Part shown: positions 17,304 to 42,296 of the stretch, piece by piece
How positions within the stretch are numbered: the stretch's first letter is position 1
Layout of the letters: each line of letters starts with the position of its first letter
DNA from: Chitinophagales bacterium
GTDB lineage: Bacteria > Bacteroidota > Bacteroidia > Chitinophagales > CAIOSU01
NCBI GenBank assembly: GCA_040877935.1
Contig: JBBDNB010000048.1
Span: 1 to 64,000 of the forward strand
Length of the DNA: 64,000 nucleotides
Direction of reading: 5' to 3'
The notes under the pieces: generated by a model
The model's input: the letters and a program-made list of their open reading frames with translations, nothing else
What the model was told of the DNA's origin: nothing
Database searches by the model: none
Made by a program: the position numbers and the translations under genes

Positions 17304-17311
17304 AGGGGTAT

Positions 17312-17343
17312 AAAAAAGGCCATCCCCACGTTTGAGGATGACC
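17312..17343 (-). promoter_or_regulatory. Terminator-like hairpin directly before the ATPase start
   Basis: On the minus strand, arms GGTCATCC and GGATGGCC (one G-U pair) are followed by six T residues, and the ATG of the 392-aa ATPase follows 8 bases later. It also lies just after the stop of the upstream gene at 17350, so it could terminate that message or attenuate entry into the ATPase gene. Confidence 0.6.
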
Positions 17344-17349
17344 CGAAGG

Positions 17350-18585: not shown

Positions 18586-20292
18586 ATGAAATACTTCATC
18601 TATGCACGTAAATCAAGTGAATCTGAGGACAGACAGAAAGCCTCTATTGAGGACCAGGTTTTTGAAGCTCAGAGAATTTCAGAGGAAAAAAATCTTGAGG
18701 TTTCTGATGTCATAACAGAGTCTATGTCAGCAAAATCCCCAGGAAGGAACGGGTTTAATAAAATGATAGAGAGAATTGAAAAGGGTGAAGCACATGGAAT
18801 CATTTGTTGGAAATTAGACAGGCTTGCTCGAAATCCAGTTGATGGAGGAAAGATAAGCTGGATGCTCCAAAATGAGCTTATTAAGGAAATTCAGACCATT
18901 GGGAGAGTATATCTACCGAATGATAATGTGCTTATGATGCAGGTCGAATTTGGGGTAGCAAATCAATATGTTAACGATCTGAGTGTAAATGTTCAGAGAG
19001 GCATGAGAAGAAAGGCAGAAAGGGGTTGGTTCCCTTTAGTTAATCTGCCTTTGGGCTACCTACATGCAAAACAGAATTCATCAGACAAAAATGAAATTAT
19101 ACCTGATCTTAAAAAATTTTCATTGGTCAAAAAAGTATGGAAAAAAATGGCAAAAGGAAATTCCTCAATTATACAACTCCGGGATTATTGCAAAGAGATC
19201 GGATTGAGAAGTAAGAATGGGAATATTCCTTCAAGAAACAGCCTTTACAGGATGTTTAAAAATGAGTTTTATCGAGGGTATTTCTATTGGAAAAACAGAG
19301 ATGGTGAGATCATAAAGTATAAAGGAAAACACAAAAGGATGGTATCGGATAAAGATTTCTTTCAAGTTCAGGAAATAATCCAAGGAAAGCGTAACCCAAG
19401 TCGTGTAAGCTCATATTTCTATCCATACCGAGGGCTTATCTCATGTGGAGAGTGTGGCGGTCATATTACTGCAGAACATAAACTCCAAGCAATTTGTACG
19501 AAATGCAAACATAAATTTTCGATCAAAAAGAACACTGTATGTCCTCTGTGTAAAACCGATCTATCTGATATGAAAAACCCAAGTGTGATAGATAAAACAT
19601 ACTACCATTGCACAAAAAACAAAGGGTCTTGTTCCCAAGGATCAATTACAATTGAAGCTATTGAAGAAAGTCTCGTCAATGAAATTGAAAAATACTATAT
19701 CCACCAAGATTTTTCTGATTGGCTCACCGAAACTCTGTTTGTAACATTTAGCAAGGATCAACAGAAAGATGAGATTAAGAAATTAAAGAAAAGAAAAACC
19801 GAACTAGGCAATAAAATAAAAGGACTTGTAGAGTTGAGGCTCAATAAGGAATTGACACAGGAAAGATACAAGGAGATGAGCCTTGAAAAAGAAAATGAAC
19901 TTTCAGAAGTCAAAGAAAAGATTTCTCACCTATGTAAATCTAATAAAAACATTTCCAGAGAAAAGCTAAAATCCTGCATCAATACCATTTTAGATTTTCA
20001 TATTGAGTTCAGGAATGGTCAGAAAAAGGATCGTCATTCAATGGTGAATAAAGTTGCTTCGAACCTGGTTCTAAAGGATAAAAAACTAATAATTTCAATG
20101 GATAAGTTGTTTATAAGCATTAAGAATTGTCAAACTACATACTATTCCCAAAATAGATGCTTCGAACCTAGATCGAGCATTGGTAATAAACACTCTCATG
20201 GCAAAAGAAGCTCTTTGTGTACCTTACTGCGGGCACAACTCAACAATATTAGAACTTTGCTTAATGAGAAAATTAATCGGGATGGTGTGTAG
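18586..20292 (+). CDS. Large serine recombinase
   Basis: A 568-aa site-specific recombinase. The N-terminal resolvase domain begins Tyr-Ala-Arg-Lys-Ser-Ser, with the catalytic Ser at about residue 10, and contains Trp-Lys-Leu-Asp-Arg-Leu-Ala-Arg-Asn. The recombinase domain follows (about 165-270). Next comes a zinc-ribbon region with Cys-Gly-Glu-Cys and two extra pairs (Cys-Thr-Lys-Cys, Cys-Pro-Leu-Cys), then a Lys/Glu-rich coiled coil (about 395-460). Such enzymes integrate and excise mobile elements. The last 50 residues lack family features and may be extended read-through. It lies far from the apparent element end at 41.2 kb, so it may belong to an element nested in the larger one. Confidence 0.85.
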   Translation: MKYFIYARKSSESEDRQKASIEDQVFEAQRISEEKNLEVSDVITESMSAKSPGRNGFNKMIERIEKGEAHGIICWKLDRLARNPVDGGKISWMLQNELIKEIQTIGRVYLPNDNVLMMQVEFGVANQYVNDLSVNVQRGMRRKAERGWFPLVNLPLGYLHAKQNSSDKNEIIPDLKKFSLVKKVWKKMAKGNSSIIQLRDYCKEIGLRSKNGNIPSRNSLYRMFKNEFYRGYFYWKNRDGEIIKYKGKHKRMVSDKDFFQVQEIIQGKRNPSRVSSYFYPYRGLISCGECGGHITAEHKLQAICTKCKHKFSIKKNTVCPLCKTDLSDMKNPSVIDKTYYHCTKNKGSCSQGSITIEAIEESLVNEIEKYYIHQDFSDWLTETLFVTFSKDQQKDEIKKLKKRKTELGNKIKGLVELRLNKELTQERYKEMSLEKENELSEVKEKISHLCKSNKNISREKLKSCINTILDFHIEFRNGQKKDRHSMVNKVASNLVLKDKKLIISMDKLFISIKNCQTTYYSQNRCFEPRSSIGNKHSHGKRSSLCTLLRAQLNNIRTLLNEKINRDGV

Positions 20293-21062: not shown

Positions 21063-22859
21063 CTAAATAATATCATATTTATGTGTATTTCTTATCAGAT
21101 GTGGTGTAGGAGTTAATCCAAATGGGTTATACCTAGAGATTTTTCTACCCTTTTCTGATATTAAGTGTAAATGCTTTTTTGCACGTGAGGTTAAAACATA
21201 AAGCATTTTTTGTGCATTTTGATCCCCATTAGCATCAGTAAAGTGTGGAATCCAGCTATCAAGTAAGCCGAAACCTATAACGACGTCAAATTCTGTGCCT
21301 TTGACTCCATGTATTGTTGATATAGTAATTCCTTGCTTTTGTTTGAATACTTTTCGAAACGTATCTATGTGTCCAATATATTCTAGCCCCTCTTTTTGAA
21401 GTCTTTTTATTCGAGATTCAGAACTGCTAAAAAAAGCTTCGTAATGTTCAGAAAGGAATTTATTTCTACCTATTTCTACTCCTAAATAATTACTCACATT
21501 TTGAAATGCTTCATCTAAATATTCTAGTCCGCCAGTTTTCTTTATGTCTATTCCATTAGTAAATCTAAGGAAAGACTTCTTACTGATTGAGGAAGTATCG
21601 ATTTGATTATTAGATAATTCGTTTAATACTTCCCCAGACCATCTAAGACGTTTCAAATATAAATTCGGAGAAGGTTCAGTTAGAATAATGCGAGATATTT
21701 TATACCAGAAATTTTCTATGTCTTTAGAAAACGGTGTCATTCCTGGTCCATTAAAATTTTGATCAGGCATTCGAGCAATAAGATTTCTAGTTATCATTGC
21801 CAAGTGCACCCATTGAGGTGCGGCTATACATATTTCATTAGGCGATATTTGATGTTCTTTTATGCTTATATTAAGCAAACGCTCAATTTCAATTTCAAGA
21901 TCTTTGTGGCTAATCAGTTGGTTATAAGTAACGATACTATTAAAGTCCTTATTTATACCTTTCGCGTTAATAGAGTTATTGTATGTTTTGTAATTTTCAA
22001 AATATTCAATTATTTTTTTTGATGATCTGTAGTTATTTTTCAAGCTGTAAGAATCATTTAAACTAAAACCAATCAATTCATCTAAATCATATTTTTTCAT
22101 AGGAAATCCGCCCATTGTCTGATAAATTGATTGGTTAGGGTCACCGACAATAAATGTTTTAGTGCTCCCTCTTCCTGCACGTAGAATATTGCAAATAATA
22201 TGATACTGAATTTCTTTCGTGTCTTGGTATTCATCTAATAGAATGAATGGAAATAAATTAGATAAAATAGAACTGATTTTCCTTTCTTTAATAAGAATTT
22301 GATATGCGTAATAAAGTATTAATTCAAAATCTATCTCTCCATTCTCCTTCAATATGTATAAATATTCATTAACTATATCTCTTACGCCTTCATTTTTTCT
22401 TGTATCTGAACAAGAAATTTCAAAACCCTGAGTTGTAGCACGATAATTTATATCCCAGATTGTTATGTTAGAATAGGATTCGCATAGTTCTTTTAAAATC
22501 TTTTCAGATTTATGGATGCTTGTAACAGTGTAGCCATCCTTTAGATCGTCATGGTAAAGGGAGTAGGGTTTTAAAATCCATTCTAGGCAAAATGAGTGTA
22601 TAGTCCCTATCCATAATTGAGAAGTGTCTACCCCGAGTAGTTCCACTCTTTCTTTTATTTCATCAGCTGCTAAATTTGTGTAGGTGATTGCTATTACAAA
22701 CTTTCTTTGGTTTTTCAATTTCGAAAGCTCCAGAGCAATTTTATAAGTGAGTGTTCTAGTTTTACCACTTCCAGGGCACGAATTAAGTAGTATACTGTCG
22801 TTCTCTAGTATTGCAGCAGACTGCTCTTCATTTAGTTCTGTATTGCTCCAGGTGAACAT
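21063..22859 (-). CDS. gajB: UvrD/PcrA-type helicase, GajB-like
   Basis: A 598-aa superfamily 1 helicase with all key motifs: Walker A Cys-Pro-Gly-Ser-Gly-Lys-Thr, motif II Leu-Leu-Asp-Glu-Tyr-Gln-Asp, motif III Val-Gly-Asp-Pro-Asn-Gln-Ser-Ile-Tyr, motif IV Asn-Tyr-Arg-Ser, motif V Ser-Thr-Ile-His-Gly-Val-Lys-Gly-Thr-Glu-Phe and motif VI Thr-Ser-Arg-Ala-Lys. It is encoded 9 bases after an OLD-family nuclease, the arrangement of the Gabija anti-phage system, in which GajB activates or assists the GajA nuclease. It is somewhat longer than well-known GajB proteins (about 500 aa), so it may be a diverged class 2 OLD-UvrD pair. The symbol rests on this gene order. Confidence 0.7.
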   Translation of the reverse strand: MFTWSNTELNEEQSAAILENDSILLNSCPGSGKTRTLTYKIALELSKLKNQRKFVIAITYTNLAADEIKERVELLGVDTSQLWIGTIHSFCLEWILKPYSLYHDDLKDGYTVTSIHKSEKILKELCESYSNITIWDINYRATTQGFEISCSDTRKNEGVRDIVNEYLYILKENGEIDFELILYYAYQILIKERKISSILSNLFPFILLDEYQDTKEIQYHIICNILRAGRGSTKTFIVGDPNQSIYQTMGGFPMKKYDLDELIGFSLNDSYSLKNNYRSSKKIIEYFENYKTYNNSINAKGINKDFNSIVTYNQLISHKDLEIEIERLLNISIKEHQISPNEICIAAPQWVHLAMITRNLIARMPDQNFNGPGMTPFSKDIENFWYKISRIILTEPSPNLYLKRLRWSGEVLNELSNNQIDTSSISKKSFLRFTNGIDIKKTGGLEYLDEAFQNVSNYLGVEIGRNKFLSEHYEAFFSSSESRIKRLQKEGLEYIGHIDTFRKVFKQKQGITISTIHGVKGTEFDVVIGFGLLDSWIPHFTDANGDQNAQKMLYVLTSRAKKHLHLISEKGRKISRYNPFGLTPTPHLIRNTHKYDII

Positions 22860-22868
22860 CTGATTGGA

Positions 22869-25010
22869 TTATAAAAGATCTAGTAAAACATTTAATTGCT
22901 TGTCTTCAACAACTGTATTTATTTCCTTATTTAGCTCCCCCAACTCACAATTATTATTTAAAAAATTCGATAATTTTAGATATACATCTGAAAAATCTAG
23001 ATAAGGATCAGAATTTTCGTGCTTTTTCAATCTGTAGCCTATTATATTGCAGATTAAGTCAACGCTAAATTCACCTTTTGCAAAAATTATTGCTTTGAGG
23101 ATATACTCTGGAATTATGGTATGGTAATTTACGCGACCACCTATAAGAACTGCTAACCATCCTTTTCCTTTTTTATTAGCCATTGCAAGTATTCTTTTCC
23201 CATATATGCTTACATCTTTACTTGCAAGTTCATTTTTCGAATCTCTTAACTTTGAAGGTTTAGTGTAAACCTCGGATAGTATTTCTTGAGCTGTTGAGGC
23301 ATTTCCACATGCAATAAAATCAACTTCGAAGGTATGAGTTGCGTAAAATGGTTTAATCCAATCGTTAGCTTTACAATACTCATCAAGAACTTTTTTTCTT
23401 CTCAAACCAACTATGCTTGAGTTTTCTATTTTCTCTTTATATTTTTCTGTTTTCTTAGTATCTGATTCATTGATTGTGGTATCGCAAATCTGTGAATCTA
23501 AATCAGTGATTATACTGCATTTTCTCTGAAGTCTCTTTTCATCAAATATTTGTGCAATATTGATGAATCCTGTACTCCGAATATTTATTAAACTTAACCC
23601 AAGTTCATCAAGGCTAACACCTAAAACTTCTTTAACGATGATCGGTATTAAAATCTCCTCCGCATCACCTTCAACCAATATAACTCCCTTGGCAAATAAA
23701 AGGTTACTTCTTACAGCATCCAAATATCTCTCAAGCTTAGCTATATCTTCAGGCTTCAGACCTATTGATGGTTGATATACTTCCGAACAGTTTATTTTTT
23801 TAGATAAAATATTTATGTGCGAAATTTTATTTACTTCTGAAATATGTGTGGAATGCGTAGAGTAAATAATTTGTGTTTCACCATATTCGAGCTTATCAAA
23901 CAATGTTTTTTGAATATGGGTGTGTATATGAGCTTCAGGCTCCTCAATTACAAGAAAATTTGCAACCTTTTCTTTTGATTTGTATTGATATTCTAAAAGT
24001 TTTAGTGCAAGAAAAATAAGATTAGCTCCTCCTAAGCTTAGTTCGTGTATTGCCCCTTCATGAGTCTCTCCAGGTTCACTTATGTATAATCTTAAAGCTT
24101 GTAATAATTTGTTTGCTTCATCAGATAAATTTGACTGGATAGAAAGTGATGCAGGGGAGTAGGTTTCACCGACAGCATCTTTTATCGTTTTTCTAATGTT
24201 TTGTCTTATCTCTTGTACGTCTGGCAGTTCTTCTATGCCTTTATTTAATTCATTTACCATTTGCGAGATGGGTTCATAATCATCTTCTTTTATTTCGACA
24301 CTCTGTTCCTTTAAAAGTGAGAGTAAAGGATTGGTTCTATTATTGTGAAAGTCACTTACAACATCTCTTAAAGCCTTAATAAAAGTAAATGATATTTCTT
24401 TTGATATTGAAAGCTGATGAGGCACTTTAATTCCAAATTTAGAAGAATCAATATCATACTCGAATTTAACATTGTCAAAATCACCAACTAGCTCCTTATA
24501 TGCTTCTGGATCGTTGAAATTAGCTGTACTTTTTCCTGTAAACCATGTTTCATATTTATCATTTAAATTATTTGGATTTATCTCGTCTAAAATTTCCTGT
24601 AAACCTTCCTGATCTCCCTCTTCTAATTCAGATAGTCGATATCTAATGTCGGCCTTAGGTCTAAAAAATAAGGTATAACTTGCTTTATTTACTTTGTCTT
24701 CGTCTTCTAAATTTCCTAAACTATGTACAAATAATGCTTGCACTGCTTCATCATCCGGGATATCGCTAAATTCTATGCTAATTATTATCCAATGCCCTTT
24801 CCAGTCATCAATTGATCTGTTAAAATCATCATGTCCTAGTTTATAGGCGTACTGATATGATGAATCATCGAGTAATAGCCTAAGTGCTCTAAATATATTT
24901 GTCTTACCAGCACCATTTTCTCCAATGATTGTATTAATCCCTTTCTGAAAATGAAATTGAGCGTTCTTAAAGTTTCTATAGTTGACAATTGATAGTTTTG
25001 ATATATGCAT
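22869..25010 (-). CDS. gajA: OLD-family ATPase/TOPRIM nuclease, GajA-like
   Basis: A 713-aa protein with an ABC/SMC-type ATPase followed by a TOPRIM nuclease. The ATPase has Walker A Gly-Glu-Asn-Gly-Ala-Gly-Lys-Thr at about 33-40, signature Leu-Ser-Leu-Gly-Gly-Ala-Asn at about 328, and Walker B Leu-Val-Ile-Glu-Glu-Pro-Glu-Ala. The TOPRIM part has Val-Glu-Gly-Asp-Ala-Glu-Glu-Ile near residue 450 and Thr-Asp-Leu-Asp-Ser near 505. This is the architecture of overcoming-lysogenization-defect nucleases and of GajA, which cuts DNA when nucleotides are depleted in phage infection. It is co-directional with the helicase. At 713 aa it is longer than typical GajA, mostly at the C terminus. Confidence 0.75.
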   Translation of the reverse strand: MHISKLSIVNYRNFKNAQFHFQKGINTIIGENGAGKTNIFRALRLLLDDSSYQYAYKLGHDDFNRSIDDWKGHWIIISIEFSDIPDDEAVQALFVHSLGNLEDEDKVNKASYTLFFRPKADIRYRLSELEEGDQEGLQEILDEINPNNLNDKYETWFTGKSTANFNDPEAYKELVGDFDNVKFEYDIDSSKFGIKVPHQLSISKEISFTFIKALRDVVSDFHNNRTNPLLSLLKEQSVEIKEDDYEPISQMVNELNKGIEELPDVQEIRQNIRKTIKDAVGETYSPASLSIQSNLSDEANKLLQALRLYISEPGETHEGAIHELSLGGANLIFLALKLLEYQYKSKEKVANFLVIEEPEAHIHTHIQKTLFDKLEYGETQIIYSTHSTHISEVNKISHINILSKKINCSEVYQPSIGLKPEDIAKLERYLDAVRSNLLFAKGVILVEGDAEEILIPIIVKEVLGVSLDELGLSLINIRSTGFINIAQIFDEKRLQRKCSIITDLDSQICDTTINESDTKKTEKYKEKIENSSIVGLRRKKVLDEYCKANDWIKPFYATHTFEVDFIACGNASTAQEILSEVYTKPSKLRDSKNELASKDVSIYGKRILAMANKKGKGWLAVLIGGRVNYHTIIPEYILKAIIFAKGEFSVDLICNIIGYRLKKHENSDPYLDFSDVYLKLSNFLNNNCELGELNKEINTVVEDKQLNVLLDLL

Positions 25011-27207: not shown

Positions 27208-28347
27208 TTAAGCTAAGCTCTCTTTTTCCTTTAAATATTCAAGGAAATCCGTAAACGTCTTTTCTTTTTGCTTGTTGAATAAATCTAAAAGGGTTCTTTT
27301 CAGCTTATTCTTTTCATTTGCTGAGTAAGTTGAACTATCATTTAGTCGAAAACTTGATATGTTTATCTCAAACTCAGCATCATCACCTTTCTTAGGGAAG
27401 TCTTTAAAGGAAAAAGTTACATTACATTTACCTTTATAATTTAGGTAACTATACTTGAATGCAGATTCAACTTCCCAAAACTTTAGATGTTTTTGAAATT
27501 TCCTTTCTTTTACAAAAAAAGTTTGATGTATTTCCTTGCCTTTAAGTTTGAGTTCGGTTTTCTTTTTCATCCAATCAATTTCTTCAGGTAATTCTGTGTT
27601 ATGATCGGGACTTATTTCGATGTTTTCAATGTCTACAAAGTCAAAAACATCGCTATTCATTTGGGATGATAATCTGTAGAAAAACAATAATCTGTTTTCA
27701 TTACTAAAGTTTCCAAATAACACCTTAACTAAATCCTTATCTGCTTTAATCTTATTTTTATCCTTTAAATAAAGTATGGCTTTTTTTTGAATTGCATTAG
27801 CAACATTATCACTCTCAGAAGAAGTGTAAGATTTTATTATAAGAAGTTGATTTTCTTCAGTTTTTTCTAAGTCAATTTGTCCGGAAAATTTATTGCTTGA
27901 TTCATACCAACTTTTGTTTAAATCAAATCTTTCTATCTCAAATGAGATAGACACTTTGTTGGGCTTGTTATTATCAAAACTTATTTTAGGAGGTGTAATT
28001 AACGAATAATTAAGTTGTTCTTCGGAGATTAAGTCATCAAGATTAAGGTCTCTGATCTCTTGAAATAATTCTAAATCAGGCTCACAATCTATTCTACTTG
28101 TTGACTTCTTTATATTGTCTTCTTTTGTGTGTTGATATTGTCTCAATTCATCAAACTCAGAGGCGCTGATTAAAACTGTACATAAAGTTGGTACAAGATT
28201 TTCCTTGTCATATAATCTGGAAAATACACCTCTAGATTTAAGAAATTTATTTAAGTCAGATTTAGAAACATAGCTTTGATTAGCAAAACCCCTTATAAAC
28301 TCTCCAAATGGTAATATTTTATCAATGTTTTCTGGCTTACTCTTCAT
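27208..28347 (-). CDS. GAPS4b-like defence partner protein
   Basis: About 379 aa from the ATG at 28347, which overlaps the end of the upstream gene by 11 bases; an in-frame ATG at 28377 would overlap by 41. It is a Lys/Glu/Phe-rich soluble protein with no obvious enzymatic motif. It begins with a conserved-looking Ile-Leu-Pro-Phe-Gly-Glu-Phe-Ile-Arg-Gly-Phe and a Leu-Lys-Ser-Arg-Gly-Val-Phe segment, and ends in a long charged helix. Gene order and tight coupling to the GAPS4a-like nuclease indicate the second component of the GAPS4 anti-phage system. The match is from recalled family features, not a search. Confidence 0.5.
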   Translation of the reverse strand: MKSKPENIDKILPFGEFIRGFANQSYVSKSDLNKFLKSRGVFSRLYDKENLVPTLCTVLISASEFDELRQYQHTKEDNIKKSTSRIDCEPDLELFQEIRDLNLDDLISEEQLNYSLITPPKISFDNNKPNKVSISFEIERFDLNKSWYESSNKFSGQIDLEKTEENQLLIIKSYTSSESDNVANAIQKKAILYLKDKNKIKADKDLVKVLFGNFSNENRLLFFYRLSSQMNSDVFDFVDIENIEISPDHNTELPEEIDWMKKKTELKLKGKEIHQTFFVKERKFQKHLKFWEVESAFKYSYLNYKGKCNVTFSFKDFPKKGDDAEFEINISSFRLNDSSTYSANEKNKLKRTLLDLFNKQKEKTFTDFLEYLKEKESLA

Positions 28348-29272
28348 AGGGATTTTCTTGGAGGTTTCTATAATCATTACAATAGTTTACTACCTTAATC
28401 TTAGCTGTAATTCCCTCATTAGTAAAAGAACTTTTTGCAATGTCAACATTTTGAATATGTCTAGTTTCATTGTAATCAGGAAATCCAATAATAATTTCAG
28501 AAGCCCATGATTTAGATAATGTTTGAGACAGGTTGATTAATCTTTTAAGATCTTCTTCCTCAAAATTGTCAATACATGTAAGAATTAGCTTGGTTTTATT
28601 CTCAGATTTACTTTCCAACCTAATAGGGATAATGCTAGAATTAATATACTCAACAGGAAGAATTTTTCCATGATCAAGCTTAAGTGAGGGGTTAATGTTT
28701 TTGCCAGTTTCAGGATAAAAAAAAGAATAATTATAACTTTCCGAAAATTTTTTGGCAAAACTAATTGATTTATAAATGAAATCAGCTCTATTGTTATCTA
28801 CCAGATAAATCTGATCGTAATTGAAATTACTTGGCGTTAATACATCACTAACTTTTTCAATCAAGTCGTCATATGTATCCTCATCATTAGATAACCAAAA
28901 TAGAACACCAATATTTTCAGATTTGATATGAGGTTCAGCATTTTTAATCCAGTTTTTATGTATATGACTATACCTGAAGCAATCTATTGACTTAGCTAAA
29001 TCCTCAAAATATTCTTTAAATTTTGTTTTTGGAGAATTGGGGTAAGGCTTAGCAGTGAATTTGACAGAAATTAGAACTTTTTTAAAAACTAAATCAACCA
29101 GAGGAGACTGATAATTAAAGGCAACATCAATACCATGGGTTCGTTTATCATGCTCCTGGTTATTGCAATCAAATTCAATAGCTTTTAAAGTTTCTGTCCA
29201 TCCGATTAATGCAAGAAAATTAGAAACAAATCTCTCACCATATTCACCTATAAGTTTAGATTTTTCTCCCAC
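28337..29272 (-). CDS. GAPS4a-like nuclease
   Basis: A 311-aa protein that looks like a PD-(D/E)XK-fold nuclease: a first helix with Gly-Glu-Tyr-Gly-Glu-Arg-Phe-Val, then Thr-His-Gly-Ile-Asp-Val-Ala-Phe-Asn-Tyr-Gln-Ser-Pro-Leu and Val-Leu-Ile-Ser-Val-Lys-Phe. In this layout the Asp of Gly-Ile-Asp and the Lys of Ser-Val-Lys are the likely active-site residues. Val-Leu-Phe-Trp-Leu-Ser, a Val-Asp-Asn-Asn-Arg-Ala motif and Phe-Phe-Tyr-Pro-Glu-Thr-Gly-Lys further resemble what I know of GAPS4a proteins. It is the first gene of a leftward pair and lies in a block of defence genes. Confidence 0.55.
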   Translation of the reverse strand: MGEKSKLIGEYGERFVSNFLALIGWTETLKAIEFDCNNQEHDKRTHGIDVAFNYQSPLVDLVFKKVLISVKFTAKPYPNSPKTKFKEYFEDLAKSIDCFRYSHIHKNWIKNAEPHIKSENIGVLFWLSNDEDTYDDLIEKVSDVLTPSNFNYDQIYLVDNNRADFIYKSISFAKKFSESYNYSFFYPETGKNINPSLKLDHGKILPVEYINSSIIPIRLESKSENKTKLILTCIDNFEEEDLKRLINLSQTLSKSWASEIIIGFPDYNETRHIQNVDIAKSSFTNEGITAKIKVVNYCNDYRNLQENPYEE

Positions 29273-31534: not shown

Positions 31535-31867
31535 CTATAGTTCTGTGTATTTTAAATTCTTTCCATAGCATTTTGTTATTGGATATTTTTTCTTGTTTAT
31601 TTCTAATTTATCCAATAGTGCTTCTTCAAGATCAATGTTCATCTTATTACAAAGCAATAACAATGAGTAGTAGGTGTCACCAATTTCTTGCTTCAAATGA
31701 TCGATGTCAATTTCAGATTCTTCTTTCCATAGAAAGACTTCTAATACTTCACTTGACTCTACGTTTAGACTCATTGCAATATTTTTTGCGGAATGATATT
31801 TAGACCAGTTTCTCTCTTTAATGAATTCAACAATTTTTTTAGTTAATATTCTTTGATTTGATTTCAT
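31535..31867 (-). CDS. MazG-like nucleotide pyrophosphohydrolase
   Basis: A 110-aa protein started at the ATG at 31867, which overlaps the stop of the adenylate kinase-like gene as ATGA. It has the MazG/dCTPase helical motif: Asn-Ile-Ala-Met-Ser-Leu-Asn-Val-Glu-Ser-Ser-Glu-Val-Leu-Glu, then Glu-Ile-Gly-Asp-Thr-Tyr-Tyr-Ser-Leu-Leu-Leu-Leu. The paired Glu residues and Glu/Asp of the second helix would bind Mg2+. Such enzymes hydrolyse (d)NTPs to monophosphates. It is the last gene of the five-gene operon. Confidence 0.75.
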   Translation of the reverse strand: MKSNQRILTKKIVEFIKERNWSKYHSAKNIAMSLNVESSEVLEVFLWKEESEIDIDHLKQEIGDTYYSLLLLCNKMNIDLEEALLDKLEINKKKYPITKCYGKNLKYTEL

Positions 31868-32430
31868 AATTCCATACATTTTACTATTTGATTAGAAACT
31901 TGACTAATAGTTCCTTCTGCTAAAATTTCACAAAATTCAATTCTACTTTTTAGTTTTTCTATAGCAGGTATAGTATCTCTATTATATACTATTTCTCTGT
32001 ATTTCTGTATTTCTTCTTTATCATCTGTACGATTTGATTCAATTCTCCTCTTTTCTTTTCGTCTGCTTAGCTCTTTTTCTGAAACAGATAGAATTATCAT
32101 CTTCTCGATATTTAGATTTTTTTTATTCAGGAAATTTAAAAAATTGTCTACTTGACCTACTGTTCTTGGAAATCCGTCAATTATAATTGAATCCTCAATG
32201 GAGGAATTTATAATTATATTTTCAAGAAGTATTTGAATCAAATTATCCGGGATTAATTCTCTTTTATCAACATATTTTTTTAGCAGTATACCATATTTAT
32301 TTTCCTTCTTAATTTCTTCCCTGATTAAAGTACCAGTTGATATGTGTTTGACACCGTATCTATTTTTAATATTTTTTGCTTGCGTTCCTTTACCGCATGA
32401 CGGTGGACCTATAAAACAAAATATTCTCAT
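31864..32430 (-). CDS. Adenylate kinase-like nucleoside monophosphate kinase
   Basis: A 188-aa short-lid adenylate kinase family protein. The P-loop is Gly-Pro-Pro-Ser-Cys-Gly-Lys-Gly-Thr (usual Gly-Ala replaced by Ser-Cys). Other features are His-Ile-Ser-Thr-Gly, Ile-Asp-Gly-Phe-Pro-Arg-Thr, and lid Arg residues in Arg-Arg-Ile-Glu-Ser-Asn-Arg-Thr-Asp-Asp. No zinc-finger lid is present. It interconverts nucleotides; the preferred base is not predictable. It is probably not the housekeeping adk, since it is AT-rich and sits in an element operon overlapping both neighbours by 4 bases. Confidence 0.8.
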   Translation of the reverse strand: MRIFCFIGPPSCGKGTQAKNIKNRYGVKHISTGTLIREEIKKENKYGILLKKYVDKRELIPDNLIQILLENIIINSSIEDSIIIDGFPRTVGQVDNFLNFLNKKNLNIEKMIILSVSEKELSRRKEKRRIESNRTDDKEEIQKYREIVYNRDTIPAIEKLKSRIEFCEILAEGTISQVSNQIVKCMEL

Positions 32431-33296
32431 TGGTCAAACAGGTTCAACTGTGGACCTTTTACTATTTTTCTTAAATCGCTAAAAGAGTCTACTTCGTATT
32501 GTGGTACTACAGTTTGTTTCTTGTATTCTTTTTTAATTTTTTTATCAGTCCAATATGTCATTTTTAATAGAGTTTCAAAATTTTTTTCTTCATAAATAGC
32601 ACCATACTTGGCCCATATTGAATGTGCTCCAATTTCATTCGCAGGAAGTATATCTTTAGCAAGGCTATCTCCAATTACGTAAGTTTCCTTGTGAGAAACA
32701 AACAAACTTGAAATTACTTTTAAATAACCAATTGGATTCGGCTTTATGTTTTCTTTAGGCTCTGGCCATCTGTGTTTAATATGTTTAGATTGATAATGAT
32801 TTGTTTCAGCTTTTTTTCTTATCTCCTCACTAAATGGACTGTCAGGAATTGAAATGCCTTCCCATCCAAGAATTCCATGAAAGTATTTGTCTAAGTTTAG
32901 TTGTTTTATTCTTTGCTCTCCAAAAAAAATAGGAGCATTAGTAACTGCAACTATTATTACCCCGGAAGACTTAAGGAACTCAAATGTTTCTTTAACTCCA
33001 GGATATGGTCTAAGATTTTTTGTTCTGACAATTGAAAATACTTTTTTTGCAAGTGAAATGAATTTTTGAATCTCATCTGAAGTGTAACGTGATATAAAGG
33101 GAAGTTCTTGAATTAAAAAACTATATTCAAGTGTTCCAACTTTTGAAAAGACTTCCTTGGCACCATCATTAAACTCTTCTTCACTTATTTTCATTTCTTT
33201 TGCAACAGCATGAACCATACCTCTATAGCTCATGCCAAAGTAGTCCACCCAATTGTAGAGGGTATTGTCAAGATCTGTTATTAATAGAGTTCTCAT
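32427..33296 (-). CDS. HAD-superfamily phosphatase
   Basis: A 289-aa hydrolase with the HAD motifs: motif I Ile-Thr-Asp-Leu-Asp-Asn-Thr-Leu near the N terminus (nucleophile Asp), motif II Val-Thr-Asn-Ala-Pro, and motif IV Val-Ile-Gly-Asp-Ser-Leu-Ala-Lys-Asp. A helical cap lies between I and II. The C-terminal 80 residues extend beyond a standard HAD core. Phosphoglycolate phosphatase or 5'-nucleotidase activity is plausible, the latter favoured by the nucleotide-handling neighbours. It overlaps the kinase by 4 bases and shares one base with the gene upstream. Confidence 0.75.
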   Translation of the reverse strand: MRTLLITDLDNTLYNWVDYFGMSYRGMVHAVAKEMKISEEEFNDGAKEVFSKVGTLEYSFLIQELPFISRYTSDEIQKFISLAKKVFSIVRTKNLRPYPGVKETFEFLKSSGVIIVAVTNAPIFFGEQRIKQLNLDKYFHGILGWEGISIPDSPFSEEIRKKAETNHYQSKHIKHRWPEPKENIKPNPIGYLKVISSLFVSHKETYVIGDSLAKDILPANEIGAHSIWAKYGAIYEEKNFETLLKMTYWTDKKIKKEYKKQTVVPQYEVDSFSDLRKIVKGPQLNLFDQ

Positions 33297-33811
33297 TATA
33301 TTTCAACTAACCACATTGTTACGTCAGTTTGCCTTAACCCTTCTAAATTAGTAACTTTTTTATCCAATATATTTTTAAATCTGGCTTCATTTTTCTTTTT
33401 CGTTGACACAGTTGGAAAATCTTTGATTAAAATATTCTTCTCTTCAACTTTCACTTCATCAATCCTGCTTAATAGGAACCATGCTGGATAAGACCCTCTG
33501 TGATAATAATTTGGAGATTTTTCTGGATAAGGTGTTCCTATAGTGGTAGGTATTGGCGCAACTTTAATATCTATAATATTTGTTCGAAATATTTTTAGTG
33601 AACCACTGTTGAACAGATATGCTTTGAAATATTCTTTCTCGTCACAGATTGTTTTAATAAACTTGAATTGTTCAATTGGAGGTGTCTCATACTGCTTCAT
33701 CCACCAGCCCCACCATACTTCGCCATGATTGTTAATCAAATCTTGATGATCTAATATAGTTCCTCCTTCTTCCGTAATTAAATCTCTGAATCTTAATATT
33801 ATTGAATCCAT
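33296..33811 (-). CDS. Unknown protein with a His-Gly-Glu-Val-Trp-Trp-Gly-Trp-Trp motif
   Basis: A 171-aa soluble protein. Residues 29-37 form a striking Trp-rich motif, followed about 70 residues later by Ile-Pro-Thr-Thr-Ile-Gly-Thr-Pro-Tyr-Pro and an Ala-Trp-Phe-Leu-Leu strand. I do not recognise a named family. A small-molecule-binding or signal-sensing domain is possible. It starts right after the stop of the methyltransferase fragment (TAAATG) and overlaps the HAD gene by one base, so it belongs firmly to the operon. Confidence 0.6.
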   Translation of the reverse strand: MDSIILRFRDLITEEGGTILDHQDLINNHGEVWWGWWMKQYETPPIEQFKFIKTICDEKEYFKAYLFNSGSLKIFRTNIIDIKVAPIPTTIGTPYPEKSPNYYHRGSYPAWFLLSRIDEVKVEEKNILIKDFPTVSTKKKNEARFKNILDKKVTNLEGLRQTDVTMWLVEI

Positions 33812-34087
33812 TTATTTTCTTTTTATTATTAGTGGTATAATCTTATGGTAATGAATATCATTTCGAGTAATAATACCAAAATTTTCTTTTAAGAATTTAA
33901 ACCATCTAGGTTTGCTAAAAACTGCTTCTACATCAAATAGTACTTCATGACCATCCTTAAGCAGTTCCTTGATTTTATATTGCTTTGGTAATTTTTCTTT
34001 TACATGTTTGTAAGTAATGTGACTTATAAGTAGGAATAATTCACCTTTTTCATTTATAATTTCATCTAAATTGTCAAATATTGTATC
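33812..34087 (-). pseudogene. 3' part of the IS-interrupted methyltransferase
   Basis: The frame runs from the target duplication at 34083-34087 to a TAA at 33812-33814 and encodes 91 residues including Gly-Glu-Leu-Phe-Leu-Leu-Ile-Ser, the late strand of a class I methyltransferase. Joining it across the IS30 element to 35168-36171, with one copy of the 5-bp duplication removed, gives an uninterrupted protein of about 424 aa. It has no start codon of its own. Confidence 0.8.
34083..34087. repeat. Target-site duplication, left copy
   Basis: GTATC here is repeated at 35168-35172, exactly flanking the IS30 element. Removing the element plus one copy restores the methyltransferase frame, which confirms the duplication. 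Confidence 0.8.
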
Positions 34088-35167
34088 TTGAATCCCAGTC
34101 TGAAATGCAACAAAAAAACATAACCCCTTTGATATAGTTAAGGTGCATTACTCACTTAACCAACCAAAGAGGCTATGTCTACACACATTAGCAAAGAAGA
34201 GCGAAAAGTAATAGCATACTGTCTGTCTTGTAACTGGAAGTATACACAGATAGCACAGCTGTTAAATCGAAACCGCAGTGTCATTTCTCGAGAATTGAAA
34301 CGCAATACTGGTGACGATGGGCAGTATCGATATGGATACGCACATCAACAGTATCTGAAACGAAGAGAAAAAGCGAAACAAGGGTATCAGAAGATACTCC
34401 ATCATTCGACCCTGCAGAACCATATTGAAGTACAGCTCAACGAAGGTCACTCACCCCAGCAGATTGCAGGGAGATTAGCTCACATCCCAACCCTGCCAAC
34501 TGTCTGTACGGAAACCATTTATCAGTTCATCTACACCCACCGACCTGCTTGGTGTCCTCTGTTGTGCTTCAAGAAGACTCAGTACCGAAGAAAGAGAGGA
34601 ACAAAGAAACGTGAAAAGAACAGGAGAATACAACAGTTTCGCTGTATTGAGACACGACCAGTATCGGTTGACACCAAGCAGTACCTCGGTGACTTCGAAG
34701 GTGATACCGTCATCGGAAAGGGAAAGAAACAACGACTCCTCACTCACGTTGATCGAAAGAGTGGCTATGGACTCGTCGATGTACTGCATCAGGTGAGCAG
34801 TGACATTGTGCAGCAACATACCATCAAACGCTTCAGTACGTTGCCTGACAGCAAACGAAGAAGTATCACCTACGACCGAGGTACCGAGTTTGGTGGAGAC
34901 GATTCTCTTGTTGAACGTTACACTGGTATGATGGTCTACCGAGCCCATGCCTATCACAGCTGGGAACGAGGGTGCAACGAAAACTTCAACGGGTTACTTC
35001 GTCGCTACTTCCCAAAAGGTACTGACTTCAGTACACTGACACAAGCAGACGTTGATGGAGTGGTTCACCAACTCAATCACCGTCCTCGCAAGAGACTTAA
35101 CTATTTAACGCCCTATGAGGTGTTTGTTGAGGGGTTAGATCCTGTTGCGTTTCAGACTAGAACCTAA
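34088..35167 (+). mobile_element. IS30-family insertion sequence, 1080 bp
   Basis: The ends are imperfect inverted repeats. Both begin TT and share AGTCTGAAA.GCAACA about 10 bases in, then TAACCCC; the outermost 9 bases match poorly. One transposase gene fills the element and its stop codon lies in the right repeat. The 5-bp flanking duplication and the intact transposase point to a recent insertion. It interrupts the first gene of the nucleotide-handling operon and probably affects expression of the genes downstream. Confidence 0.85.
34175..35167 (+). CDS. IS30-family transposase
   Basis: A 330-aa DDE transposase. The N-terminal helix-turn-helix covers about residues 8-45 (Glu-Arg-Lys-Val-Ile-Ala, Arg-Ser-Val-Ile-Ser-Arg-Glu-Leu-Lys-Arg-Asn). 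The catalytic core has Gly-Asp-Phe-Glu-Gly-Asp-Thr-Val-Ile-Gly (first Asp), Thr-Tyr-Asp-Arg-Gly-Thr-Glu-Phe (second Asp) and Glu-Arg-Gly-Cys-Asn-Glu-Asn-Phe-Asn-Gly-Leu (Glu). Length is normal for the family and no frameshift is seen, so it may be active. It is read opposite to the gene it interrupts. Confidence 0.9.
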   Translation: MSTHISKEERKVIAYCLSCNWKYTQIAQLLNRNRSVISRELKRNTGDDGQYRYGYAHQQYLKRREKAKQGYQKILHHSTLQNHIEVQLNEGHSPQQIAGRLAHIPTLPTVCTETIYQFIYTHRPAWCPLLCFKKTQYRRKRGTKKREKNRRIQQFRCIETRPVSVDTKQYLGDFEGDTVIGKGKKQRLLTHVDRKSGYGLVDVLHQVSSDIVQQHTIKRFSTLPDSKRRSITYDRGTEFGGDDSLVERYTGMMVYRAHAYHSWERGCNENFNGLLRRYFPKGTDFSTLTQADVDGVVHQLNHRPRKRLNYLTPYEVFVEGLDPVAFQTRT

Positions 35168-35172
35168 GTATC
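35168..35172. repeat. Target-site duplication, right copy
   Basis: Second copy of GTATC, immediately after the IS30 right end at 35167; partner of 34083-34087. Confidence 0.8.
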
Positions 35173-36171
35173 AATGACTTCTAATCCCCCAACCGCAGTA
35201 TAGTAATCTTGAGAAACATCTGTTTTTCTATTTGATTTTGGAAGTGGAATATATGGAGGATTGCAGATTGCGAGATCATATTTGCATTTCAATACTTGAG
35301 TACTGAACTTTCCGCAGATAAATGAAATTGTCTTATTGTCAATTTGGTGTTTGGTCAAATTTGAATACAGGTTTTTGTGAGTGCAATAGATAGCATTAAA
35401 GTTCACATCTACTATATCAAGCTGATCTAAACCATTCTGATTCTTCACAGTTGAAATTGATAATAACCCATTCCCACATCCAATTTCTGTTGCCTTACTA
35501 TTAGTTTTTTCTTCTTCGAAATAGTATTGACATAAAACTTCGTTCATCAATATTGTATCAATGGATGGTCCGAAAACTTGTACATCCTTTCTTTTATCCA
35601 CATGAATTAAAATTCCTCTATGATATATAAGTTTATGTCCAGTACTAAGGATTTCTTTCAACATATTTCGACTACTCATTCCTGCTTGATTTATTGAACC
35701 CCAGAAATCAAAAACAGATTGGGGTTCGTCAATTGCATCAATGACCTCAAGACCAGTTTTATATCTGTGAAATCTTGAAATGATACAGAAATGCATTCCA
35801 GCCACGTATATTAATAGTCCACCTGATGCTGGAATATTCATTATATTCCTTGAATTTGAAATATGATGTGTTATGTTTTTTGATAAAGCCTCCCATGCAT
35901 AATACAATACCATGCCAATTTTATCCATCTCATGATTTGGGTTGGTTGAGGTTTTTTTAAAATTGTCAATATCTAAAAAGAAATCTTTCAGATTTCCATA
36001 ACCAACAGAATTTAAAGCTTTTAGGCCATACTTTGATGCAAAAATATTCAAGAATCCATCATGTAATGAATCATTTACATAGGAAATCCAGTCTTCAAAA
36101 CTATTTTCTTCAACAGCAATTCTTAACGCCTCGTTTCCTTCTTTATGTCTTTTCGAATTAATATTTATCAT
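35168..36171 (-). pseudogene. 5' part of the IS-interrupted methyltransferase (HemK-like)
   Basis: Starts at the ATG at 36171 and encodes 334 residues before running into the IS. The N-terminal half (about 1-205) is of unknown function. The second half is a class I methyltransferase with Ala-Thr-Glu-Ile-Gly-Cys-Gly-Asn-Gly-Leu-Leu (SAM site), Ile-Val-Asp-Val-Asn, and the Asn-Pro-Pro-Tyr motif typical of N-methyltransferases acting on amide or amino groups (Gln, adenine). The restored product would be about 424 aa. It heads the operon that continues with 33811-31535. In this genome it is likely non-functional. Confidence 0.8.
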
Positions 36172-39660: not shown

Positions 39661-39738
39661 GTCGCTCTATATCTTTGGAATAGCTATAGATGAATAATAT
39701 GAGAATAATCAATACACACCCTCCATGTGTATCATATA

Positions 39739-39767
39739 TTTCATACCTTTAGGGAAAAGGCATGAAA
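39739..39767 (+). promoter_or_regulatory. Hairpin overlapping the recombinase start codon
   Basis: Twelve-base arms TTTCATACCTTT and AAAGGCATGAAA (one mismatch) flank a 5-nt loop. The 3' arm ends at the A of the recombinase ATG (39767), so the folded RNA would hide the ribosome-binding region. This resembles the hairpins that protect transposase and integrase genes from read-through expression. Confidence 0.6.
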
Positions 39768-41254
39768 TGAAAAAAGTAGGAATTTGGCTGAGAGTCAGCA
39801 CCGATGATCAAGCAAAGGGAGATAGCCCAGAACACCATCAGAAAAAGGCGGAAATGTATGCCGAGGTTAAAAGCTGGGAGGTTGTAGAAATCTATCACTT
39901 GGAGGGAGTGAGTGGGAAATCAGTAATGAAACACCCGGAAGCGCAAAGGATGCTTGCAGATGTAAAGCGGGGGCACATTACTGGTTTAATTTTCTCAAAA
40001 CTCGCACGTCTTGCAAGAAACACCAAAGAGCTTTTAGATTTTGCTGAATATTTTCATACCTACAAAGCGGACTTGGTAAGTCTGTATGAATCAATAGATA
40101 CATCGTCACCAGCAGGACGATTCTTCTATACCCTCATATCAGCAATGGCTCAATGGGAACGTGAAGAGATTTCGACTCGTGTTGCTGCTTCCGTGCCCAT
40201 ACGAGCAAAGCTTGGAAAACCTTTAGGAGGAGCGGCACCATATGGCTACAAATGGAATGATAAAAAGCTGGAAATCGATGACAAGGAAGCTCCGATCAGA
40301 AAGATGATGTACGAGCTTTTTCTCAAGCTCAAAAGAAAAACAACGGTGATTAATACCCTTAATGAACAAGGGTATCGAACCAGAAAAGGAGCAAAATTCA
40401 CAAAAAACACCCTAACCCGTCTCCTTCGTGATCCCATCGCAAAAGGCATGAGACGTATGAACTACACTCAAAGCACCGGAGAAGGAAAAAAATGGATTGA
40501 AAAACCACAAGATGAATGGGTTTTCCAAAAAGCCCCGGCCATTATATCAGAAGAAGTATGGGATGAAACCCAAAAGCTCTTAGACGAGCAAATGAGCACT
40601 TTTAAGAGAAGGACTAACGGAAAGGTGAAACCATTCACAAAAGTCACACATTGCGCCTGTGGTGGCAAATTCCACTACCAAACACCAACTTCAAAATATG
40701 TTTGCAAAAAGTGCAACAACAAAATCAAGGATGAGGATCTCGATGTAATTTTCCATGAACAACTGACAGAATATGTTATCTCAGAAGATAGTTTGAAAGA
40801 ACATCTCTCTGACAGCAATCAGAAAATCTATGAAAAAAAGAAAGCACTTTCAGCAATTCAATCAAAAATAAAAGAACTAGAAATTGAAATAAATAATCTC
40901 GTCCAACTTCACAAAGAAGGTGAAATTCCAACCAAAGGTTTTGGAGAACTCTATAATCCAATATACGAACAGCTCAATCAACAACGAGATACCATCCCAA
41001 AACTCGAAGGAGAAATACAAGCCTTAGAACAATTACAAACATCAAGTGAATATATGTTTGATGAAGCCAGGAGTGTTTACAAAAAATGGACAACCTATTC
41101 AATAGATGAAAAAAGAGAGATTGTAAATACAATTACAGAATCAATTATTGTTGGTGAAGAAGATATCACCATCAATCTTTTATACCTCACGCCACCAAAC
41201 GCCCTTCTTCATGAAACCCATTCAAATGGGGTCCACAACCACAAGGATTCATAG
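39767..41254 (+). CDS. Large serine recombinase at the comM junction (putative element integrase)
   Basis: A 495-aa recombinase from the ATG at 39767; upstream in-frame codons to 39725 are not family-like. Domains: resolvase ([10 protein letters not shown] with the catalytic Ser, Lys-Leu-Ala-Arg-Leu-Ala-Arg-Asn), recombinase domain (Gly-Gly-Ala-Ala-Pro-Tyr-Gly-Tyr), a zinc ribbon (Cys-Ala-Cys-Gly-Gly, Cys-Lys-Lys-Cys) and a coiled coil (about 345-430). Its last 68 bases overlap the end of the truncated comM gene on the other strand, placing it at an element boundary. This is the typical position of a serine integrase next to its attachment site. Confidence 0.85.
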
Positions 41255-42296
41255 AAGAAACCAACATAAAGCTTGCAGGGTAATCCACGGTGAATTTTGC
41301 GCGGGAAATGGTAATATGCCGATCTTCAATAGGTTGCCTGAGTACTTCGAGTACGCTGCGCTTGAATTCGGGCAATTCGTCCAAAAATAAAACCCCATTG
41401 TGCGCCAGGGAAATCTCACCGGGTTGCGGATAATTGCCGCCACCCACCAGTGCCACATCGCTCACGGTGTGATGTGGAGCGCGAAAGGGTCTTTGGTGTA
41501 TCAGGCTTGAGTGGTCTTGCAACTGTCCGGCAACCGAATGAATTTTGGTGGTTTCCAGTGCCTCTCGAAGATTGAGTGGAGGTAAAATGCCCGGCATCCG
41601 CTTCGCCAGCATGGTTTTTCCCGCTCCGGGCGGACCTATTAAGATTACGTTGTGGCCACCGGCTGCAGCAATTTCCAATGATCTTTTGATATTTTCCTGT
41701 CCCTTTACATCTGAAAAATCAAGCTCAATATGATCCAGGCTTTCAAAAAACTCATTGCGTGTATCTACAAATTCGGGCTGTAAATCCGATTCCCCGTTCA
41801 GTAAATCTACCACCTGACGGATATTTTCCACCCCGTAAACATCCACATCATTTACTATGGCAGCCTCACGGGCATTGGCTTTTGGAAGGATCAGGCCTTT
41901 GAAATTTTCCTGCCGTGCTTTTATGGCTATCGGCAATGCCCCTTTAATGGGCTGTACATTTCCATCGAGCGATAATTCGCCCATAATGATAAAGTCTTTT
42001 AGCAACTCATCGCTCATCTGTTCTGAGGCAGCAAGGATTCCGGCAGCGATGCTCAGGTCATAGGCCGATCCTTCTTTTTTGATATCGGCAGGCGCCATGT
42101 TCACCACTATTTTGGTGCGCGGCATCTTGAAACCATTGGTTTTCAGAGCAGCCTCAATGCGCTGCTGACCTTCCTTTACAGCATTATCGGGCAATCCTAC
42201 CAGGTAGTAGTTCATGCCCCCTGTAACCATGGTTTCAATGGTAATGGTATGTGCATCCACCCCATATACCGCGCTGCCAAAAGTCTTTACTAACAT
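41187..42296 (-). pseudogene. comM: comM/yifB truncated by element insertion
   Basis: The product is 369 aa, while ComM/YifB proteins are about 510. The N-terminal part is intact: a ribosomal-S5-like domain, then a Mg-chelatase/AAA+ domain with Walker A Gly-Pro-Pro-Gly-Ala-Gly-Lys-Thr, Walker B Leu-Phe-Leu-Asp-Glu-Leu-Pro-Glu-Phe, and Met-Leu-Val-Ser-Ser-Met-Asn-Pro-Cys. The family then has a Cys-rich segment and the sensor/lid domain. Here the frame continues with 17 unrelated residues encoded by element DNA. ComM helps natural transformation by driving DNA branch migration, so this cell probably lacks it. Confidence 0.8.
41233..41252. other. Probable attachment-site junction (attR) in comM
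   Basis: Similarity to ComM stops at the Asn-Pro-Cys codons (about 41241-41249 on the plus strand as ACAAGGATT). A serine-integrase crossover would lie within a few bases of this. No second copy with the rest of comM was found in the window, so the core cannot be fixed. Confidence 0.35.

What the first reader, a model, noticed from the sequence alone, without database searches (positions are those of the whole stretch)
31535..36171. Five-gene nucleotide-handling operon of unknown purpose
Seen: methyltransferase with Asn-Pro-Pro-Tyr motif, Trp-rich unknown protein, HAD phosphatase, adenylate kinase-like protein and MazG-like pyrophosphohydrolase, with overlaps of 1-4 bases or TAAATG. Known: kinase, HAD and MazG families all act on nucleotides. 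Together they suggest making, modifying or removing a nucleotide, for instance a modified nucleotide signal or an altered dNTP pool in defence. I know of no named system with this set.
Basis: partly seen in the sequence, partly recalled or inferred. Interest (0 to 1): 0.65.

Follow-up and report, generated by a model that had tools for sequence, protein, structure and literature searches.

The report
DS-9-related operon, methylase split by transposon
Five neighbouring bacterial genes, one of them cut in two by a jumping gene, look like a rare variant of a recently found anti-virus system in which a protein resembling readers of methylated bases sits beside a methylase and nucleotide-processing enzymes.

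Summary
The Trp-rich protein is Pfam 'Pua-like' and matches only the N-terminal 162 of 486 positions of NCBIfam DS9_1 'anti-phage phosphoesterase'. The HAD gene belongs to the clade of DS-9B (30% identity). DS-9 (phosphoesterase + HAD) is an experimentally validated E. coli defence system of unknown mechanism (PMC13092281, section 7 read). Here the phosphoesterase is absent, and a methyltransferase, an adenylate-kinase-like protein and a DCTPP1-type MazG are present. The core methyltransferase-Pua-HAD recurs in one other genome (L023), sister to the window in both trees; ADK recurs in no related locus, MazG in one. The Pua model (pLDDT 90) resembles YTH-type m6A readers at middling Z. In 24 of 35 related genome loci the Pua-phosphoesterase lies next to a DPPW methyltransferase, suggesting a writer-reader module. 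Best reading: a DS-9-related defence operon using modified-base recognition and nucleotide hydrolysis, probably disabled here by IS30.

The parts
35168..36171 (-). N-terminal part of the methyltransferase gene (about 335 codons; EIGCGNG and CNPPY motifs), interrupted by IS30
   Evidence: PF05175 MTS E 1.3e-10; homologues L023:1132-2442 (436 aa) and L030:6586-7971 (461 aa)
34088..35167 (+). IS30-family insertion sequence, transposase ORF 34175-35167; 5-bp target duplication GTATC on both sides
   Evidence: NF033563 E 2.9e-72; boundaries and duplication; single copy in the genome
33814..34087 (-). C-terminal part of the split methyltransferase gene (about 90 codons, no start of its own), followed directly by the Pua gene (TAAATG)
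   Evidence: L023 methyltransferase matches both parts
33296..33811 (-). Pua-like protein, 171 aa, no phosphoesterase domain; predicted YTH/EVE/PUA-like fold; invariant W34 G35 W36 W37 K39 E42 H22
   Evidence: PF24405 E 6.3e-31; NF053862 DS9_1 positions 1-162 of 486, E 9e-36, 123.7 bits versus cut-off 420; model pLDDT 90.4; invariants over 32 sequences
32427..33296 (-). HAD-family phosphatase, 289 aa, motifs DLDNT, VTNA, KPNP, GDSLAKD present; DS-9B-type C-terminal tail
   Evidence: PF13419/PF00702; PADLOC PDLC03008 'Hydrolase' E 1.4e-39; 30% identity over 284 columns to the plasmid DS-9B-type HAD; motifs
31864..32430 (-). Adenylate-kinase-family protein, 188 aa; GPPSCGKGT, STG, DGFPRT present; second copy beside the housekeeping-like adk elsewhere (37% identity)
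   Evidence: PF00406 E 1.4e-35
31535..31879 (-). MazG-like all-alpha NTP pyrophosphohydrolase of DCTPP1/RS21-C6 type; E..E..E, EIGD and two Trp aligned to DCTPP1 present; start 31867 gives ATGA overlap
   Evidence: PF12643 E 3.5e-9; DCTPP1 6sqw E 5.9e-13; motifs

Best explanation
The operon is a rare, MPE-less relative of the anti-phage system DS-9, carried on an integrated mobile element and probably inactivated in this strain by IS30. Shown: the Pua-like protein and the HAD are homologues of the DS-9A N-terminal domain and of DS-9B; the methyltransferase-Pua-HAD core exists once more elsewhere; the catalytic motifs of HAD, kinase and MazG are present; the methyltransferase is split by a clean insertion. 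Inferred, in falling order of certainty: (a) the intact operon is a defence system (about 0.65); (b) the Pua protein is the sensor, a YTH/EVE-type pocket that binds a modified base or nucleotide, because it is the one constant part while its partners change (phosphoesterase, SEFIR, stand-alone) (about 0.5); (c) the methyltransferase sets or makes the mark that Pua reads (about 0.35); (d) the output here is hydrolysis of nucleotides, MazG turning dNTPs into dNMPs and HAD removing the last phosphate, with the kinase feeding back adenine nucleotides, so that phage replication is starved (about 0.3).
For: Pua: 32 of 32 aligned members match PF24405 and the family includes the validated DS-9A relatives (L009 Pua-MPE scores 571.6 against the DS9_1 cut-off of 420). 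HAD: same PADLOC family as the plasmid, prophage and L023 HADs, with adjacency to Pua in 7 of 35 genome loci and 10 of 12 viral loci. Window and L023 are sisters in the Pua tree (96/89) and the HAD tree (100/99). Domain swaps: Pua fused to phosphoesterase, to a bSEFIR-like domain (L051, PADLOC E 8.6e-6), or alone (window, L023, L030). Fold: YTH domains fill nearly all of the first 50 VIA rows (Z 7.2 to 6.4), with Thermococcus McrB N-domain at 6.5; Foldseek ranks 1-4 are YTHDC1. Defence setting: Gabija at 21063-25010, transfer and serine-recombinase genes, comM split between contigs; related loci beside Hachiman. MazG and HAD are the only nucleotide hydrolases of the operon, and a MazG of the same family also follows Pua-MPE in L047.
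Against: The domain essential for DS-9 defence, the metallophosphatase, is missing here, so loss of defence is possible even in the uninterrupted form. YTH resemblance rests on structure alone: best Z 7.2 is under the tool's caution level of 8, Foldseek E is 0.015 or worse, and sequence profiles find no YTH or EVE family (0 of 32 members; 0 chains). ADK has no counterpart in any related locus and MazG only one. NPPY also occurs in glutamine and guanine N2 methyltransferases; the window's closest curated models are PrmC/HemK-type. No activity has been shown for any of these genes here.
Confidence: 0.5

Rival explanations
1. Modified-nucleotide signal system: the methyltransferase and kinase make a methylated adenine nucleotide, Pua binds it as receptor, HAD and MazG clear it, in the manner of other nucleotide-signal defences. 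No nucleic-acid mark is read.
For: Four of five genes act on nucleotides; YTH pockets also bind the free base (PDB 7ywb, YTHDF2 with N6-methyladenine, in the list); ADK residues for adenine binding are kept.
Against: No nucleotide cyclase or polymerase is in the operon; no effector with an obvious killing domain (TM, TIR, nuclease) lies in the window operon; nothing shows small-molecule binding.
Confidence: 0.2
2. House-cleaning or repair operon: MazG and HAD remove damaged or modified dNTPs, ADK salvages, and the methyltransferase and Pua act in RNA or DNA maintenance; no defence role.
For: MazG is closest to dCTP pyrophosphatase 1; HAD scores best with phosphoglycolate-phosphatase and nucleotidase models; kinase + MazG + phosphoesterase + HAD sets occur in phage RNA-repair neighbourhoods (PMC9503650, passage read).
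Against: The Pua family is absent from 395 of 396 genomes of the order, including six of the same family, and from all but the own genome among 395 of the phylum, which is unlike a house-keeping operon; its relatives lie in prophages, plasmids and beside defence genes.
Confidence: 0.15
3. The five genes are a core of three (methyltransferase-Pua-HAD) joined by chance to an unrelated kinase-MazG pair.
For: L023 has the three without ADK or MazG; ADK recurs in 0 and MazG in 1 of the other loci examined; ADK and MazG have lower GC (0.28) than HAD and Pua (0.32).
Against: ATGA overlaps couple HAD, ADK and MazG translation; a MazG of the same Pfam family also overlaps the Pua-MPE gene in L047.
Confidence: 0.2
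4. In this strain the operon is a dead relic: IS30 cut the first gene and its transcription into the other four.
For: Clean insertion inside the first gene, transposase on the opposite strand.
Against: The other four frames are intact and overlap; the insertion shows no following decay, and a promoter downstream of the IS was not looked for. This rival is compatible with the best explanation for the intact form.
Confidence: 0.45

Closest known systems
DS-9 (DefensePredictor, PMC13092281; NCBIfam NF053862 DS9_1 for gene A)
   Same: Pua-like domain of gene A; adjacent HAD of the same family (30% identity full length); tight coupling of the two genes
   Different: No metallophosphatase domain; extra methyltransferase, kinase and MazG genes; 123.7 bits against the model's cut-off of 420. 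The paper's main text has no occurrence of YTH, PUA or modified base.
HAD + transmembrane protein system of P4-like satellites (PMC9122126; PADLOC PDLC03008 taken to be its HAD, by recall)
   Same: HAD of one family (E 1.4e-39); L065 HAD-TM fusion is sister to window + L023 in the HAD tree (97/94)
   Different: No TM partner recognised in the window operon (L023 has one, PDC-M50A)
YTH/EVE-type modification-dependent restriction (McrB-YTH, CoCoNuTs; PMC7641849, PMC11090510, PMC11037411, passages read)
   Same: A YTH-like reader domain with exchangeable effectors, in defence
   Different: No GTPase or nuclease; reader lies with a methyltransferase and phosphatases; resemblance is by predicted fold only
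DCTPP1/RS21-C6 (dCTP pyrophosphatase 1)
   Same: MazG-like protein with the same acidic motifs and two aligned Trp
   Different: Shorter; substrate untested
Adenylate kinase
   Same: P-loop, STG, DGFPRT
   Different: Second copy, 37% identical to the genome's other adk; STGT instead of STGD

Membership tests
DS-9 | Gene A carries the N-terminal Pua-like domain | tested here: met
   PF24405 E 6.3e-31; DS9_1 positions 1-162, E 9e-36
DS-9 | Gene A carries a metallophosphatase domain (catalytic residues essential, PMC13092281) | tested here: not met
   Protein is 171 aa; no calcineurin-like domain in any of the operon's frames in Pfam
DS-9 | Gene A passes the NCBIfam DS9_1 cut-off (420 bits) | tested here: not met
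   123.7 bits; plasmid relative L009 571.6
DS-9 | Gene B is a HAD phosphatase of the same clade directly downstream | tested here: met
   BLASTP 9e-37 over nearly full length; TAATG junction; PDLC03008 for both
DS-9 | Protects against phage | not testable with these tools
   -
HAD-TM defence system (Rousset 2022) | HAD of PADLOC family PDLC03008 | tested here: met
   E 1.4e-39, 2-279 of 288
HAD-TM defence system (Rousset 2022) | Adjacent transmembrane protein | tested here: inconclusive
   None of the operon proteins scanned matches a PADLOC TM partner; no TM predictor was run
YTH/EVE reader domains | YTH or EVE fold | tested here: inconclusive
   VIA Z 7.2, rmsd 3.4-3.6, 109-118 aligned, below the caution level of 8; Foldseek E 0.015, prob 0.57-0.66
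YTH/EVE reader domains | Sequence match to the YTH or EVE family models | tested here: not met
   0 of 32 members listed with either at E up to 5; 0 PDB chains at E up to 10
YTH/EVE reader domains | Binds N6-methyladenine | not testable with these tools
   -
N6-adenine-type methyltransferase | SAM motif and (D/N)PP(Y/W) | tested here: met
   EIGCGNG and CNPPY, conserved in L023 and L030; gene is interrupted
N6-adenine-type methyltransferase | Methylates adenine N6 | not testable with these tools
   NPPY is shared with glutamine and guanine N2 enzymes
DCTPP1-type MazG | E..E..E and E..D metal motifs | tested here: met

The most novel reading that the evidence does not exclude
The family is a prokaryotic writer-reader immune module: an adenine-N6-type methyltransferase (DPPW or NPPY) writes, a compact YTH-like protein or domain (WWGWWxK) reads, and an exchangeable nucleotide or signalling effector (metallophosphoesterase, SEFIR, or in this window HAD + MazG + adenylate kinase) acts.
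Probability: 0.2. Interest if true: 0.85.

Novelty: new variant of a known kind. Interest (0 to 1): 0.6.

Why it matters
DS-9 protects E. coli but its ligand is unknown. The comparison made here gives a concrete, testable idea about it: its N-terminal domain resembles readers of methylated adenine, and most of its relatives are paired with a methyltransferase. If true, it would link nucleic-acid or nucleotide methylation to a phosphatase-based immunity in bacteria, and it would explain a set of unnamed two-gene loci in Pseudomonadota, Bacillota, Actinomycetota, Spirochaetota and Bacteroidota.

Tried and rejected
Single-sequence searches found little: the Pua protein gave 2 of 395 phylum genomes, of which one (G279, L002) is a tetratricopeptide cyclase-like protein and was dropped as spurious; the PF24405 profile gave only the own genome of 395; viral scans with the single Pua and HAD proteins gave nothing. 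The HAD hit in G045 (L005) has no recognisable operon partner and was set aside. The methyltransferase profile gave one weak viral match (L061, 28% over part) with no related neighbours, dropped. The methyltransferase structure model (L023, three sequences) had pLDDT 57.7 and was not used. Polynucleotide kinase-phosphatase-like RNA repair was considered for kinase + HAD: rejected because the kinase is a plain adenylate kinase by profile. In one search the methyltransferase C part was translated in a wrong frame; the hits were recomputed with the right frame. The phosphoesterase labels come from short motif patterns; loci marked 'mpe?' were accepted as phosphoesterase-bearing from their BLAST alignment with the plasmid protein. 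In fold results no family absent from the list is taken as excluded. Literature: searches for the gene set gave nothing on it, and (YTH, phosphoesterase, anti-phage, PUA; any three) gave three papers, none holding all four; the library holds open-licence PMC papers only, so 'not in print' is limited to that.
Full report
What is in the window. Between the methyltransferase and the Trp-rich gene sits an IS30-family element, 34088-35167, with its transposase on the plus strand (34175-35167, NF033563 E 2.9e-72), imperfect terminal inverted repeats and a 5-bp target duplication GTATC. The remaining end of the methyltransferase gene (33814-34087) runs into the Trp-rich gene with TAAATG. Joining the flanks gives one open frame of 424 codons. 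The transposase has a single copy in the genome. GC: operon 0.30, IS 0.46, window 0.357, chromosomal-looking genes at 42-45 kb 0.40.

What the genes are. Methyltransferase: PF05175, closest curated models of the PrmC/HemK type, with EIGCGNG and CNPPY; two full-length homologues share its ~190-residue N-terminal part. Trp-rich protein: PF24405 Pua-like, and the first third of the DS9_1 model. HAD: PADLOC PDLC03008 'Hydrolase' E 1.4e-39, with all four HAD motif regions. Kinase: adenylate kinase family with P-loop, STG and DGFPRT, a second copy next to another adk in the genome at 37% identity. MazG: PF12643, DCTPP1/RS21-C6 type, E 5.9e-13 to human DCTPP1, metal motifs kept.

Link to DS-9. In Klebsiella and E. 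coli plasmids the Pua-like domain is the N-terminus of a 549-residue metallophosphoesterase followed with a 4-base overlap by a HAD and then by Hachiman. The plasmid protein scores 571.6 against the DS9_1 cut-off of 420. DefensePredictor (PMC13092281, section 7 read) reports DS-9 as two genes, a metallophosphatase and a HAD, that protect E. coli; mutation of the metallophosphatase abolished defence, and both targets are unknown. The window HAD aligns with the plasmid HAD over nearly full length (30%, 9e-37). The HAD family is also, as I recall it, the PADLOC model for the HAD + transmembrane system that inhibits T7 in P4-like satellites (PMC9122126, passages read); a natural HAD-TM fusion (L065) is sister to window + L023 in the HAD tree.

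Survey of relatives. A scan of one genome for each of 84,980 species with a Pua alignment returned 35 loci (72 stretches matched the patterns, 37 were not confirmed). Of the 35: 24 have a DPPW methyltransferase beside a Pua-phosphoesterase (in L039 on the other strand); 7 have the HAD (L023, L024-L027, L032, L051); 2 have the window's methyltransferase family (L023, L030; L023 is in both of the last counts); 3 (L031, L035, L056) are cut at contig ends. No locus with a phosphoesterase had both methyltransferase and HAD. The three loci with neither phosphoesterase nor other fusion (window, L023, L030) are the ones with the NPPY methyltransferase. In L051 a bSEFIR-like domain (PADLOC E 8.6e-6) is fused to Pua, with HAD next to it. 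Of 12 viral loci, 10 have the HAD, 1 the DPPW methyltransferase, 1 is cut at its end. ADK: none in the related loci; MazG: one, L047, directly after Pua-phosphoesterase (a weak P-loop match of a kinase-PurA fusion in L044 is not counted). Flanks were at most 8 kb and many contigs are short, so these are lower bounds. The Pua family is absent from the other 395 of 396 genomes of the order and 394 of 395 of the phylum.

Trees. Window and L023 are sisters for Pua (ultrafast bootstrap 96 / SH-aLRT 89) and for HAD (100/99). One row (L035, 70 residues) was dropped before the Pua tree. The MPE-free proteins L030 and L051 do not join them with support.

Fold of the Pua protein. The model has mean pLDDT 90.4 and pTM 0.86. 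Foldseek against the PDB gives YTHDC1 at ranks 1-4 (E 0.015-0.030, prob 0.57-0.66) and the EVE/DUF55 protein THYN1 at rank 5. VIA gives nearly only YTH domains in the 50 rows, Z 7.2-6.4, 9szp with 118 aligned at 3.6 A, and the Thermococcus McrB N-domain at Z 6.5. The tool warns that Z under 8 may mean only a common arrangement. Sequence profiles do not reach YTH or EVE. PUA-superfamily membership is also Pfam's own name for the family. From reviews seen as passages (PMC7641849, PMC11037411), YTH domains read m6A in RNA, and in DNA when fused to archaeal McrB.

The DPPW partner. 13 of 19 of these proteins match PF10237 'probable N6-adenine methyltransferase' at E up to 1, best 9.4e-8; DPPW is, by recall, the signature of METTL3-type m6A writers. 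This supports, without proving, that writer and reader of one mark sit side by side. The window's methyltransferase is of another family and its target is not deducible.

Mechanism proposed. Pua senses a modified base or nucleotide; the methyltransferase sets that mark; MazG and HAD destroy nucleotides and the kinase modulates adenylate pools. Only the gene content, homology, motifs and the IS insertion are shown; every functional step is inferred. In DS-9 the phosphoesterase is needed, and it is lacking here, so this operon must either use another output or be non-defensive.

Setting. Gabija genes at 21063-25010; serine recombinases at 18586-20292 and 39725-41254; coupling-protein-like ATPases at 7325-10306 and 16125-17363; comM N part at 41187-42296 with its C part on another contig (C36:6726-7016). 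I read this as a mobile element inserted in comM next to the recombinase, carrying a defence cargo; the other end was not located in the window.

Verdict. Real, tightly packed operon; broken first gene; a new variant related to DS-9, not a member of it (metallophosphatase and score cut-off not met). The broader writer-reader pattern in its relatives is the more interesting outcome.

Noticed in passing
L028, L029, L033, L034, L036-L050, L052-L055, L057 (24 loci): Unnamed two-gene unit: DPPW methyltransferase overlapping or abutting a Pua-metallophosphoesterase, across at least five phyla; 13 of 19 methyltransferases match PF10237.
   Followed up: partly
L041:4639-6965, L044:9515-11938, L048:11335-13625, L049:11007-13293: A P-loop kinase fused to adenylosuccinate synthetase, paired with DUF7002 and (L041, L049) near a YfbR-like HD protein, within a few kb of the methyltransferase/Pua-phosphoesterase pair.
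   Followed up: no
window 21063-25010: Complete-looking Gabija pair, GajB (21063-22859) and GajA (22869-25010).
   Followed up: no
window 39725-42296: Serine recombinase next to a truncated comM; the comM C part is on contig C36 (6726-7016), consistent with an element integrated in comM.
   Followed up: partly
window 27208-29272: Two overlapping minus-strand genes of unknown family; the 311-aa one has a weak PADLOC 'Hp1' match (E 0.0012).
   Followed up: no
L023:686-1135: Four-base-overlapping membrane protein before the methyltransferase, PADLOC candidate PDC-M50A E 8.5e-27.
   Followed up: partly
L065:5989-7581: HAD of the same clade fused to a membrane segment in a viral contig, likely a one-gene form of the HAD-TM system.
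   Followed up: no
L051:886-1959: bSEFIR-like domain fused to the Pua-like domain, followed by the HAD.
   Followed up: partly
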